Shown here: one piece after another, positions 4,915 to 11,608 of the stretch
Numbering within the stretch: the stretch's first letter is position 1
How the letters are laid out: each line of letters opens with the position of its first letter
From: a virus
Length of the DNA: 44,829 bases
Reading direction: 5' to 3' (one strand)
IMG/VR virus record: IMGVR_UViG_3300031841_004154
Span: 1 to 44,829 of that record
Position numbers and translations under genes: made by a program
Notes under the pieces: generated by a model
Databases searched by the model: none
Seen by the model: the letters and a program-made list of their open reading frames with translations, nothing else
Told to the model about the DNA's origin: nothing

Positions 4915-5112
4915 TTATTCACTATGTGCGAAGCACCCGTTTTCTACTGTTTTATTGCCTACGTTTATTTCATAGGATGAAAGAGTTGGCTCTTCATACT
5001 TTATTGCTTCTATCTTTTTTACTGCATCCTTATAGGTATACCAACTATAAATGTGTTGTTCACCGTTAGTATGCCAAGTATATATTTGATGGTTTTTATT
5101 TTCTTTGCTCAT
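4915..5112 (-). CDS. Hypothetical protein, 65 residues
   Basis: I take ATG 5112 (MSKENKNHQIYTW) as the start. The upstream in-frame TTG lies in the promoter leader. The product is small and soluble, with a Tyr/Trp-rich beta-like segment (YTWHTNGEQHIYSWYTY). It is the first gene of the operon 5112-3402 and has its own promoter directly upstream. No homologue is recognised. Confidence 0.65.
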   Translation of the reverse strand: MSKENKNHQIYTWHTNGEQHIYSWYTYKDAVKKIEAIKYEEPTLSSYEINVGNKTVENGCFAHSE

Positions 5113-5119
5113 AGGTAAC

Positions 5120-5147
5120 AATATAAACTAAATGGATTGATTGTCAA
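5120..5147 (-). promoter_or_regulatory. Early promoter for the 5112-3402 operon
   Basis: On the minus strand TTGACA is followed after 16 bp by TATATT, which ends 7 nt before the ATG. It matches the geometry of the other early promoters, but the -10 is weaker and lacks the TGN extension. Confidence 0.65.
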
Positions 5148-5217
5148 TTTAAATTAATTTTTATTATTTTTTATTATTTGCTTGACTTATTCTTTTTGTG
5201 TGTTCAATGTTTGTCTA

Positions 5218-5296
5218 TAACTCCTTGAGTATCAAGGAGTTACGAAGGCGCGGCATGCCGCGCCGCCCCTAAGTCGTTGATACTTAACGACTTACA
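5218..5296. repeat. Composite palindromic repeat, copy 2
   Basis: The left hairpin has perfect arms TAACTCCTTGA and TCAAGGAGTTA around GTA. The core is GGCGCGGCATGCCGCGCC, an 18-bp perfect palindrome. The right hairpin has arms TAAGTCGTT and AACGACTTA. Compared with copy 3, both arms of the left hairpin have changed together (CTCC/GGAG against CTCG/CGAG), so base pairing is conserved. It lies between the DUF932 terminator and the 5112 promoter. Confidence 0.9.
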
Positions 5297-5332
5297 GAAC
5301 TTTTTACTTTATTATGTGTCAAGTTAAAAACA

Positions 5333-5361
5333 CAAAAAAAACCCGACCCTTTCGGGTCGGG
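5333..5361 (-). terminator. Intrinsic terminator of the DUF932 gene
   Basis: Read on the minus strand, CCCGACCC, tetraloop GAAA and GGGTCGGG form a perfect 8-bp stem followed by at least eight T residues. It starts 15 bp after the DUF932 stop codon. Confidence 0.95.
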
Positions 5362-5376
5362 CGTGACGAGTTTCAA

Positions 5377-6291
5377 CTAGGCTGGAAGTATGTCAAATGA
5401 CTCTGGATCAAGTGGCACACCGTCACCCCAGTTAACAGGCTCCACAGCCTCCGCAAGCCGTTCCGCTTCCTTCTCTTTAACTAGGACATCAGCTTCCAAA
5501 ACTGCCGAACGATGACCTGCCACACCATCAAAGAGGCTCTGCATCTTCATAGTGCGCTCTGGGAGCTTAGACAAATCACCGCCCTTGAGATTCTCAGTGA
5601 CAGCGTTGTAGAGGTTCCAGAGGGTGTTACCTCTGAACTCAGGGTGTCGAGGGTCGCGAAACTCCTTGACAGTTTTGTACACATCCCTTTCAGGGAGTGC
5701 CTTGCACTCGGCAAGGTCAACAGCAAGGTTGCTTGCAACCTCTGGAGAAATCTCAGCCTCCTTGTAGGCTTCGATCCTCTGACCCATATCAGCCCAAGAT
5801 GAGCGGATACGGCTGATAGCCTTGGCTAGCATTCCGTCAAGATCACGGAGGATATTGACAGTGTGTCTGCGAGCGAGCTTAACGTCAGACGAAAAGCACA
5901 TATTGTCGCAGACCAACATGGAATTACCCATGCAAGCGGAAGCCGCTGTGGACTTGTCGCTTGAGTTACGTAGCCCGAAGACCAAACGGCGATCATCGCC
6001 TGTGATGCCCTCACCTCTGAGAGCGAAGCCACCGAAGTAGCGTTGACCCCCTCTAGCGAGGGCGTGTTCCTCCTCCGAGATGGAGAAACCTGCTTTACCT
6101 AAAGCCTTACGTGCCTTAGAGACAAGTAGGCTGTGTGGGATCGGCGTATGAGTAGCCGTCTTTTCAGGCGTTTTTACCGCCTTAAGCTGATCTTCTACGG
6201 ATAGAAGCTCACGCTCTCTGCGAGTCCAGACCGACCCTGCCGTTGGCAAGGTGATTGGCTCCAGTTTGTTTTTTGCATATATCAATGCCAT
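5377..6291 (-). CDS. DUF932-family protein (phage/plasmid-like protein)
   Basis: The 304-residue product carries the DUF932 hallmark LVFGLRNSSDKSTAASACMG, preceded by FGGFALRGEG and followed by MLVCDNMCFS and a helical C-terminal half. Members are encoded by phages, plasmids and mobile elements, often as abundant early proteins, and have no proven activity. I chose ATG 6291 (MALIYAKN) because a consensus promoter ends 5 nt before it; the in-frame TTG 6 nt upstream would overlap the -10 region. Its codon use is visibly more GC-rich than almost all neighbours, which suggests recent acquisition or selection for high expression. It has its own promoter and terminator, so it is a monocistronic unit. 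Confidence 0.85.
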   Translation of the reverse strand: MALIYAKNKLEPITLPTAGSVWTRRERELLSVEDQLKAVKTPEKTATHTPIPHSLLVSKARKALGKAGFSISEEEHALARGGQRYFGGFALRGEGITGDDRRLVFGLRNSSDKSTAASACMGNSMLVCDNMCFSSDVKLARRHTVNILRDLDGMLAKAISRIRSSWADMGQRIEAYKEAEISPEVASNLAVDLAECKALPERDVYKTVKEFRDPRHPEFRGNTLWNLYNAVTENLKGGDLSKLPERTMKMQSLFDGVAGHRSAVLEADVLVKEKEAERLAEAVEPVNWGDGVPLDPESFDILPA

Positions 6292-6296
6292 GCCCA

Positions 6297-6325
6297 ACTA
6301 TAACCGCAAAAAAGAAAATGTGCAA
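6297..6325 (-). promoter_or_regulatory. Early promoter of the DUF932 gene
   Basis: TTGCAC, 17 bp, TATAGT, then 5 nt to the ATG on the minus strand. The predicted start of transcription falls on the start codon, so the mRNA is expected to be leaderless. Confidence 0.85.
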
Positions 6326-6391
6326 GCACTAAAAACAAAAAAAAGAAAAAAAATCGCTCCAACATTGCCCGATATTTAGTCAAATATTTAC

Positions 6392-6533
6392 TTGACAAAA
6401 AAACTTTATTTTTTAGTTGACAAGGGATTACATAGTAAAAGAGTAGTAATGTGTGTAACTCGTTGAGTATCAACGAGTTAGGGCCGCCGCGGCATACCGC
6501 ATCTTCGTAACTCGTTCAGGGTGAACGAGTTAT
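6392..6533. repeat. Composite palindromic repeat, copy 3, with TTGACA pair
   Basis: Two TTGACA words lie on the plus strand at 6392 and 6417 (25 bp apart). The palindromic part runs 6455-6533. Its left hairpin has perfect arms TAACTCGTTGA and TCAACGAGTTA, the core is GCCGCGGCATACCGC, and the right hairpin has arms TAACTCGTTCA and TGAACGAGTTA. It lies between the structured RNA terminator and the DUF932 promoter. Confidence 0.88.
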
Positions 6534-6551
6534 AGAGAAAGTTAACAGAAC

Positions 6552-6599
6552 AAAAAGAAACCGCCGATAGGACAACAACTATGAAAACCTATCGACGGC
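6552..6599 (-). terminator. Intrinsic terminator of the structured RNA region
   Basis: On the minus strand GCCGTCGATAGG (6588-6599) pairs with CCTATCGGCGG (6561-6571) across a 16-nt loop with one G-T wobble, and TTTCTTTTT follows. It closes the structured region 6600-6866. Confidence 0.85.
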
Positions 6600-10771: not shown

Positions 10772-10777
10772 GTTTTA

Positions 10778-10806
10778 ACTATAGTACAGATTTTTATTTA
10801 ACGCAA
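10778..10806 (-). promoter_or_regulatory. Early promoter of the 80-residue gene at 10771
   Basis: TTGCGT, 17 bp, TATAGT, then 6 nt to the ATG, preceded by a long A-rich stretch. Confidence 0.85.
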
Positions 10807-10825
10807 GTATTTATTTTATTTTTTT

Positions 10826-11005
10826 TTAGAACCAAGCTTCTAAGATTTCTTCCTCTACTACTTCGAAGACCTCATCTAATTCTTTAACCTCAACGTGTAC
10901 GCAGTTGTCTTCAATGTGAAACACAACCCCAGTGTCAACAAACTCCAAGTTGTCGCCATGCTTAAAAGTTACTCTGTCATTTAATTCTATATCAGTTATT
11001 TTCAT
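10826..11005 (-). CDS. Small acidic beta protein, 59 residues
   Basis: I chose ATG 11005 (MKITDIELND) because the promoter ends 6 nt before it. The product is acidic and beta-rich with a hydrophobic alternation (RVTFKHGDNLEFVDTGVVFH, VHVEVKELDEVFEVVEEE), consistent with a small KOW- or SH3-like barrel. No family can be named. Confidence 0.65.
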   Translation of the reverse strand: MKITDIELNDRVTFKHGDNLEFVDTGVVFHIEDNCVHVEVKELDEVFEVVEEEILEAWF

Positions 11006-11011
11006 GTTTCT

Positions 11012-11040
11012 ACTATAGCACAAGTTCAAGTTAAACGCAA
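11012..11040 (-). promoter_or_regulatory. Early promoter of the 59-residue gene at 11005
   Basis: TTGCGT, 17 bp ending TGC, TATAGT, then 6 nt to the ATG. An A-tract lies upstream of the -35. Confidence 0.87.
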
Positions 11041-11058
11041 GATCTTTTTTATTTTTTT

Positions 11059-11280
11059 TTAGCCCTTGTGAGGAATTGTTAGTTCCTCTTTAAGAACATT
11101 CTGCCAGAACCAAGCTGACACGATGCCGACCTTTGACGGCTTGATGCGAGCCATCGCACATTTTGCCTCAAGGAAGGCAACAGAACCACGCTCCATGAGG
11201 AGACGCTTGCCATGATTTTCATGGCCAACAGGGAACACGCTAGCTTTAGCGTAGAGAACGAAGTCTTTATTATTTTTCAT
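11059..11280 (-). CDS. Hypothetical protein, 73 residues
   Basis: I chose ATG 11280 (MKNNKDFVLYAKASVF) because the promoter ends 5 nt upstream; the longer frame enters the -10. The product has a beta-then-helix pattern (RGSVAFLEAKCAMARIKPSK) and a Trp-rich segment (AWFWQNVLKEEL). No family is recognised. Confidence 0.65.
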   Translation of the reverse strand: MKNNKDFVLYAKASVFPVGHENHGKRLLMERGSVAFLEAKCAMARIKPSKVGIVSAWFWQNVLKEELTIPHKG

Positions 11281-11285
11281 ATCTA

Positions 11286-11314
11286 AGTATACCACAGTTT
11301 AAGTTAAAAGTCAA
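11286..11314 (-). promoter_or_regulatory. Early promoter of the 73-residue gene at 11280
   Basis: TTGACT, 17 bp ending TGG, TATACT, then 5 nt to the ATG. A long A-tract lies upstream. Confidence 0.87.
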
Positions 11315-11342
11315 GGATAAAAGTATATTTTTTTTTTTTTTT

Positions 11343-11573
11343 TTACAAGCTCAACTTGTTGAGCATTGGAGACCAGTCACGGCTAACCATGTCAGCCAAG
11401 CTCTCGCTGATGTCATCGATTGAGTCGATGGCGATCTCTTGCTCGCCTCCGTCTTGATCCATAGCCCACACAAACCCGTTTTCGAAGTCTGTATCTGTTA
11501 CCACGAACCACTCACCGCGAGCAGTGATTTCAGTTCCATTTCCTAAACGACTAATTAATTCTTTGTTTTTCAT
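11343..11573 (-). CDS. Acidic hypothetical protein, 76 residues
   Basis: ATG 11573 (MKNKELISRLGNGTEI) is chosen because a consensus promoter ends 6 nt upstream; the 49 extra codons of the longer frame span that promoter. The product is acidic and beta-rich (ARGEWFVVTDTDFENGFVWA) with a helical end. A short palindrome (GCTCAAC, AA, GTTGAGC) lies just before its stop, followed by an A-run. It is the outermost early gene, divergent from the late module. Confidence 0.65.
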   Translation of the reverse strand: MKNKELISRLGNGTEITARGEWFVVTDTDFENGFVWAMDQDGGEQEIAIDSIDDISESLADMVSRDWSPMLNKLSL

Positions 11574-11579
11574 GCTGTA

Positions 11580-11608
11580 AGTATACCATACATTTAGCAA
11601 AAAGTCAA
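11580..11608 (-). promoter_or_regulatory. Early promoter of the 76-residue gene at 11573
   Basis: TTGACT, 17 bp ending TGG, TATACT, then 6 nt to the ATG. Confidence 0.87.

What the first reader, a model, noticed from the sequence alone, without database searches (positions are those of the whole stretch)
5112..11608. Thirteen early promoters fused to start codons: a leaderless-mRNA regulon
Seen: TTGACW or TTGCNN, 16-17 bp, TATAGT/TATACT-type -10, then only 5-7 nt to the ATG, upstream of genes at 5112, 6291, 7452, 7696, 8691, 9015, 9526, 9812, 10490, 10771, 11005, 11280 and 11573. Spacers share an AATCTGTGC-like end and TGN extension, most have A-tracts upstream, and eight of the thirteen genes start ATGAAAA or ATGAGAA. 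Known: sigma-70 transcription starts about 7 nt after the -10. Inference: transcription begins on the A of ATG, so these mRNAs have no leader. The conserved promoter-start cassette may have been duplicated, or may bind a common regulator. Cotranscribed second genes such as 10239 have a Shine-Dalgarno-like GGAG instead.
Basis: partly seen in the sequence, partly recalled or inferred. Interest (0 to 1): 0.82.

Follow-up and report, generated by a model that had tools for sequence, protein, structure and literature searches.

The report
Phage promoters fused to start codons
In a widespread uncultured marine phage group, nearly every early gene carries its own promoter placed so that the messenger RNA should begin exactly at the start codon, with no ribosome-binding leader; these promoter-plus-start units also appear to be where genes are swapped between related phages.

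Summary
All 13 listed minus-strand genes have a sigma70-type promoter (TTG, 16-17 bp, TAnnnT) ending 5-7 nt before the ATG. Shuffled upstream regions average 0.07 such genes (maximum 2 in 2,000 trials), and each cassette is the only promoter-like site within 220 nt. Base -1 is a pyrimidine in 13/13. Over the window and ten related marine viral contigs the -10-to-ATG distance peaks at 6 nt (38/85/39 at 5/6/7); four other phages show no such peak. Orthologs with different promoter sequences keep the spacing. This matches the published bacterial leaderless signature (PMC3160421).

Three extensions. (1) The clade scarcely uses Shine-Dalgarno sites (10% of ORFs, 8% at control positions; 32-54% in other phages). 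(2) A second motif, GTGTAA, probably the -10 element of a phage-encoded sigma factor, sits 8-10 nt before many late-gene ATGs, so late mRNAs may also be leaderless or nearly so. (3) Two relatives carry chimeric cassettes at a gene loss and a gene swap, so cassettes are probably recombination junctions, like T4 PeSLs.

No 5'-end RNA data exist and the host is unknown. Leaderless mRNA is known; clade-wide phage use of it appears new.

The parts
5110..5147 (-). promoter-start cassette of gene 4915-5112 (TTGACA, 16, TATATT, 7 nt, ATG)
6289..6325 (-). promoter-start cassette of the DUF932 gene 5377-6291 (TTGCAC, 17, TATAGT, 5 nt, ATG)
7450..7487 (-). promoter-start cassette of gene 7195-7452 (TTGCAA, 17, TAGATT, 6 nt, ATG)
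7694..7730 (-). promoter-start cassette of gene 7517-7696 (TTGACT, 17, TACAGT, 5 nt, ATG)
8689..8726 (-). promoter-start cassette of gene 8434-8691 (TTGCGT, 17, TATACT, 6 nt, ATG)
9013..9049 (-). promoter-start cassette of gene 8752-9015 (TTGCTT, 16, TATAGT, 6 nt, ATG); one side of the crossover seen in L083
9524..9561 (-). promoter-start cassette of gene 9526 (TTGCTT, 17, TATAGT, 6 nt, ATG); other side of the crossover seen in L083
9810..9846 (-). promoter-start cassette of gene 9585-9812 (TTGACT, 17, TATAGT, 5 nt, ATG)
10488..10524 (-). promoter-start cassette of gene 10242-10490 (TTGCAT, 16, TATACT, 6 nt, ATG)
10769..10806 (-). promoter-start cassette of gene 10529-10771 (TTGCGT, 17, TATAGT, 6 nt, ATG)
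11003..11040 (-). promoter-start cassette of gene 10829-11005 (TTGCGT, 17, TATAGT, 6 nt, ATG)
11278..11314 (-). promoter-start cassette of gene 11062-11280 (TTGACT, 17, TATACT, 5 nt, ATG); a different gene follows this cassette in L082
11571..11608 (-). promoter-start cassette of gene 11346-11573 (TTGACT, 17, TATACT, 6 nt, ATG)
44307..44345 (-). further cassette, 7 nt to the ATG of gene 43536-44309, recurring in relatives
12801..13481 (+). phage sigma-like protein: sigma region 2, four invariant cysteines, sigma-4-like C-terminus
11743..11748 (+). GTGTAA motif, 16 nt before the ATG of the PhoH gene
17347..17352 (+). GTGTAA motif, 8 nt before the ATG of gene 17361
18230..18235 (+). GTGTAA motif, 8 nt before the ATG of gene 18244
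20203..20208 (+). GTGTAA motif, 8 nt before the ATG of gene 20217; its TAA is also the stop codon of the upstream gene
28121..28126 (+). GTGTAA motif directly after a terminator hairpin and T-run, 8 nt before the ATG of gene 28135
30994..30999 (+). GTGTAA motif, 10 nt before the ATG of the tape measure gene 31010

Best explanation
The early region of this marine phage is a set of small genes and short operons, each headed by a self-contained cassette: A-tract, TTGnnn, about 17 bp, TAnnnT, about 6 nt, ATG. Host sigma70-type RNA polymerase starts on the A of the start codon, so these mRNAs are leaderless and ribosomes initiate directly on the 5'-terminal AUG. Later a phage sigma factor (12801-13481) probably redirects polymerase to GTGTAA promoters; these lie 8-10 nt before many late-gene ATGs, so many late mRNAs would also have no leader or a very short one. 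Because transcription and translation signals are compressed into one homologous unit of about 40 bp that ends at the ATG, any coding sequence joined behind it should be expressed, and the repeated cassettes thereby serve as crossover points for gain, loss and replacement of early genes. Shown by sequence: cassette anatomy, spacing and its conservation, lack of Shine-Dalgarno sites, GTGTAA enrichment, chimeric cassettes. Inferred: the transcription start, leaderless translation, early/late timing, and the pairing of the sigma factor with GTGTAA.
For: 13 of 17 early genes carry the cassette at 5-7 nt, shuffles mean 0.07 and maximum 2 in 2,000 trials. It is the only promoter-like site in 220 nt for each. 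Over 11 contigs the distance counts are 38/85/39 at 5/6/7 nt, mostly single digits elsewhere, with no peak for GTG or TTG, almost none in reversed sequence and none in four other phages. Pyrimidine at -1 in 102/122 cassette genes against 283/636 others. Orthologs keep the spacing with replaced promoter sequences, and gene 8411 has its own cassette in several relatives. Shine-Dalgarno cores in 61/595 ORFs against 45/595 at control positions, versus 19/35 in T4 and 39/95 in a Pelagibacter phage. GTGTAA in 77 upstream regions against 10.6 expected, 2.52 per kb before genes against 0.15-0.18 inside genes. Sigma region 2, conserved in relatives. Chimeric cassettes at a gene loss in L083 and a gene swap in L082. 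Published signature: TANNNT about 12 bp upstream of the start (PMC3160421).
Against: No RNA 5' ends are available and the host is unknown, so neither start site nor ribosome behaviour is measured. A few genes have strong Shine-Dalgarno sites (22431, 40238). GTGTAA is 11-16 or 25 nt from the ATG in some genes, so not all late mRNAs would be leaderless. The sigma model has low overall confidence (pLDDT 60) and no structural match below E 0.001. Only two recombination junctions were resolved.
Confidence: 0.82

Rival explanations
1. The promoters are real, but transcription starts farther upstream or downstream than assumed, so the mRNAs carry short leaders, or begin inside the ORF with translation from a later codon.
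For: Start positions can vary by a few nucleotides, and nothing was measured. 7696, 8691 and 10771 have in-frame internal ATGs within the first 25 codons.
Against: The first codons are conserved in orthologs and coupled to the spacing. The only internal start with a Shine-Dalgarno core is a TTG at codon 15 of gene 6291. No other promoter-like site lies within 220 nt. The -1 pyrimidine bias sits exactly at the ATG.
Confidence: 0.12
2. The TAnnnT near the ATG is not a promoter but an AT-rich translation-initiation signal of a host that does not use Shine-Dalgarno sites, as in Bacteroidetes or cyanobacteria.
For: The clade has almost no Shine-Dalgarno enrichment. One related contig lies in a bin labelled Flavobacteriaceae. 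AT-rich or dipyrimidine start contexts are reported for such groups (PMC3160421).
Against: A TTG box 16-18 bp upstream accompanies the hexamer in all 13 genes, and shuffles that keep dinucleotide content do not reproduce it. Other genes of the same phages lack it. A pure translation signal has no reason to keep a -35 box and its spacing.
Confidence: 0.05
3. The sharing of cassettes reflects selection on promoter strength alone, and gene exchange merely happens at gene borders; cassettes are not recombination junctions.
For: Only two junctions were resolved base by base. Viable gene exchange tends to occur at gene borders anyway.
Against: The L083 junction is a switch inside the cassette from 9526-type to 9015-type sequence, at a deletion of about 0.5 kb bounded by those two cassettes; the L082 swap also switches within the cassette.
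Confidence: 0.3

Closest known systems
Bacterial leaderless genes with TANNNT about 12 bp upstream of the start (PMC3160421; Deinococcus, PMC12340547; Mycobacterium tuberculosis, PMC3898074)
   Same: Same geometry: first T of TANNNT 12 bp before the start codon, ATG start, no ribosome site.
   Different: Here in a phage clade, with a clear TTG -35 box, repeated in front of most early genes; start sites not measured.
Leaderless mRNAs of alpha-proteobacteria (Caulobacter 375, PMC4117421; Sinorhizobium meliloti 171, PMC3616915)
   Same: Leaderless mRNAs as ordinary expression mode beside non-Shine-Dalgarno genes.
   Different: Cellular genomes; whether this phage infects such a host is not established.
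T4-type PeSLs, early-promoter stem-loop cassettes linked to gene shuffling (Arbiol 2010 and Comeau 2014, as cited in PMC4503421)
   Same: Repeated early-promoter cassettes in a region of small early genes, associated with gain and loss of genes.
   Different: No stem-loop is required here and the cassette ends at the start codon, so it carries the translation signal as well.
T4 late promoters and gp55 sigma factor (own knowledge)
   Same: Phage sigma factor plus a short -10-like motif without an evident -35 element.
   Different: Motif is GTGTAA; the protein appears to keep a sigma-4-like domain and has four invariant cysteines; the motif lies 8-10 nt before the ATG.

Membership tests
Leaderless genes | -10 box about 6 nt before the start codon (TANNNT 12 bp upstream) | tested here: met
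   13/17 early genes, shuffles mean 0.07; clade-wide peak at 6 nt
Leaderless genes | ATG rather than GTG/TTG start | tested here: met
   No peak for GTG or TTG
[quoted passage not shown]
   No RNA data; indirect support from the pyrimidine at -1
Leaderless genes | Translation of the leaderless mRNA by host ribosomes | not testable with these tools
   Host unknown
PeSL-type mobile promoter cassettes | Repeated early-promoter cassettes in a region of gene shuffling | tested here: met
   Chimeric cassettes at a gene loss and a gene swap
PeSL-type mobile promoter cassettes | Stem-loop terminator as part of the cassette | tested here: not met
   Most of the 13 cassettes have an A-tract and no stem-loop; a few relatives have a hairpin overlapping the -35 box. 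Works like a PeSL, not filed as one.
Sigma70-family factors (12801-13481) | Sigma region 2 domain | tested here: met
   Pfam Sigma70_r2, E 7.9e-8, above the curated cut-off
Sigma70-family factors (12801-13481) | Sigma region 4 domain | tested here: inconclusive
   C-terminal domain well modelled (blocks mostly 76-92 pLDDT) and resembles the -35 binding domain in 3hug (prob 0.99, TMt 0.7), but E about 0.3
Sigma70-family factors (12801-13481) | Recognition of GTGTAA | not testable with these tools
   Association only: factor and motif both present across the clade

The most novel reading that the evidence does not exclude
Probability: 0.45. Interest if true: 0.75.

Novelty: new variant of a known kind. 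Interest (0 to 1): 0.6.

Why it matters
Leaderless mRNAs in phages are known mostly from single genes such as lambda cI. Here sequence alone predicts a phage clade whose early, and perhaps late, genes are built around them, which gives a natural system for asking when leaderless initiation pays off. It also predicts something about the unknown host: ribosomes tolerant of leaderless mRNA, little use of Shine-Dalgarno sites, TTGAC/TATAAT-type promoters. It offers a simple mechanism for turnover of early genes, since any ORF joined to the cassette at its ATG should be expressed. Gene finders that expect a ribosome site could miss or mis-start these small genes.

Tried and rejected
1. A common regulator or operator within the spacer: shared bases amount to an A-tract, a T at -17, about one third TGn and a C before the -35; no operator is evident, so no regulon is claimed.
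2. Host assignment: genome contigs gave one hit only, in a bin labelled Flavobacteriaceae; the terminase has no close isolate; the ribonucleotide reductase of a relative is nearest to that of alpha-proteobacterial phages (about 63%). The hints disagree, so the host stays open. A known Pelagibacter phage uses Shine-Dalgarno sites (39/95 ORFs), which argues mildly against SAR11.
3. Alternative downstream starts with ribosome sites: one case only, a TTG.
4. Sequence search of the sigma protein against solved structures: no relevant hit.
5. Rfam on 1-12000: nothing up to E 0.1.
6. GTG/TTG leaderless starts: no peak.
7. Literature search for a phage clade with systematic leaderless promoters: none found in the open-access library; subscription papers are not covered.
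Full report
What the window is. It is a 44.8-kb linear IMG/VR virus record from a tailed phage: a minus-strand block of small genes from about 3.7 to 11.6 kb, then a plus-strand block with PhoH, a sigma-like protein, an ERCC4-type nuclease, a large terminase and a tape measure protein. A terminase search found 178 related stretches in viral contigs; 80 were kept, and ten records of 32-109 kb were read in full. 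No cultured phage is close: listed terminase hits are at or below 30% identity.

Checking the observation. I re-extracted 17 early minus-strand genes. Exactly the 13 named genes have TTGnnn-(16-18 bp)-TAnnnT ending 5-7 nt before the ATG, and none has such a site at distances 0-4 or 8-25. Dinucleotide shuffles of the same regions give 0.07 genes on average and at most 2 in 2,000 trials. Each cassette is the only promoter-like site in 220 nt. The base before the ATG is T or C in all 13.

Relatives. In the window plus ten related contigs the distance from a sigma70-like -10 to an ATG opening an ORF of at least 40 codons is 38, 85 and 39 at 5, 6 and 7 nt, against mostly single-digit counts at other distances; GTG and TTG show no peak, and reversed sequence gives almost no sites. 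The same script on parts of T4, Pelagibacter phage HTVC008M, Bacillus phage SPBc2 and Roseobacter phage DSS3P8 shows no peak. So neither the method nor AT-rich sequence alone creates the signal. Where orthologs of window genes can be compared, spacing is kept although the promoter sequence has been replaced: 9015, 10771 and 11573 in L105, and 9015 in L083. Gene 8411, a promoterless second cistron in the window, has its own cassette in several relatives, built from different sequences.

Why transcription should start on the ATG. A -10 box ending 6 nt before the A puts the usual start on that A. Bacterial leaderless genes were recognised by the same geometry, TANNNT beginning about 12 bp upstream of the translation start (PMC3160421), and the arrangement was confirmed by experiment in Deinococcus (PMC12340547). 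Start sites prefer a pyrimidine at -1 and a purine at +1 (own knowledge). Cassette genes have a pyrimidine at -1 in 102 of 122 cases (60 C), other genes of the same phages in 283 of 636 (96 C). This is inference, not a measured start.

Lack of ribosome sites. Over ORFs of at least 120 codons in the 11 contigs, a Shine-Dalgarno core is found in 61 of 595 at the right distance and in 45 of 595 at a control distance. For T4 the counts are 19 and 2 of 35, for HTVC008M 39 and 11 of 95, for SPBc2 19 and 6 of 42, for DSS3P8 21 and 8 of 65. A few genes do have strong sites, such as 22431 and 40238, so the host may still have a usable anti-Shine-Dalgarno sequence.

A second promoter class. The most enriched hexamer within 50 nt upstream of genes of at least 80 codons is GTGTAA: 77 regions against 10.6 expected. 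Its density is 2.52 per kb in the 30 nt before genes and 0.15-0.18 per kb inside genes. It ends most often 8, 9 or 10 nt before the ATG. Several copies follow directly after a terminator-like hairpin and T-run, for example before 28135 and its orthologs, where the transcript for the next gene can hardly start elsewhere. I read it as the -10-like element of the phage's own sigma factor (12801-13481), which carries sigma region 2 by Pfam, is kept in the related loci that cover that position, has four invariant cysteines in the middle, and has a C-terminal domain resembling sigma region 4. The model is of low overall confidence, and the pairing of factor and motif is a guess from association. If right, many late mRNAs have a leader of 0-3 nt; others, with the motif 16 or 25 nt from the ATG, have short leaders.

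Cassettes as recombination junctions. L083 lacks gene 9526. Its 9015 ortholog directly follows the 9812 ortholog, and its cassette is a chimera: the upstream half matches the 9526 cassette, and the part from the -10 into the coding sequence matches 9015. In L082 a different gene follows the 11280 cassette, again with a switch inside the cassette. Crossovers between direct-repeat cassettes would leave such products. T4-like phages have PeSLs, early-promoter cassettes linked to shuffling (cited in PMC4503421). The present cassettes differ by ending at the start codon and mostly lacking a stem-loop. Two base-resolved junctions are too few for a rate.

Judgement. My estimates: early leaderless mRNAs 0.82, GTGTAA as a phage promoter about 0.7, late leaderless or nearly leaderless mRNAs about 0.5, a real role of cassettes in recombination about 0.65. 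Leaderless mRNA is a known kind; its systematic use across a phage clade is, as far as the held literature shows, a new variant.

Noticed in passing
3022-3124, 5217-5305, 6443-6545, 7802-7960, 9107-9241, 9891-10024: Family of about 90-nt GC-rich elements in the gaps of the early region, each with two copies of an AACTCGTTGA..TCAACGAGTT hairpin flanking a GCGGCATGCCGC palindrome; also found in relatives in both orientations. Single copies fold well (z -2.2 to -6.9), covariation is slight, and Rfam has no match.
   Followed up: partly
6390-6423, 9097-9127, 9879-9908 (+ strand): Paired TTGACA boxes about 24 nt apart on the plus strand just before some of these hairpin elements, perhaps promoters of small RNAs.
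   Followed up: no
1760-1888: Four tandem copies of a 33-34-nt unit containing GCTAGAATGTCGGATAT; possible origin or binding-site array.
   Followed up: no
L105 (10771 ortholog), L105 and L108 (8411 orthologs): Some cassettes in relatives have a hairpin (for example CTTGCCCTTCGGGGCAAG) overlapping the -35 box, as if a terminator for the other strand were merged with the promoter.
   Followed up: no
12801-13481: The sigma-like protein has four invariant cysteines (84, 87, 96, 108) between its two domains, suggesting a metal-binding insert.
   Followed up: no
22431-23573 and 40238-41059: A few late genes have strong Shine-Dalgarno sites (AGGAGG, GGAGGA) in a genome otherwise nearly free of them.
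   Followed up: no
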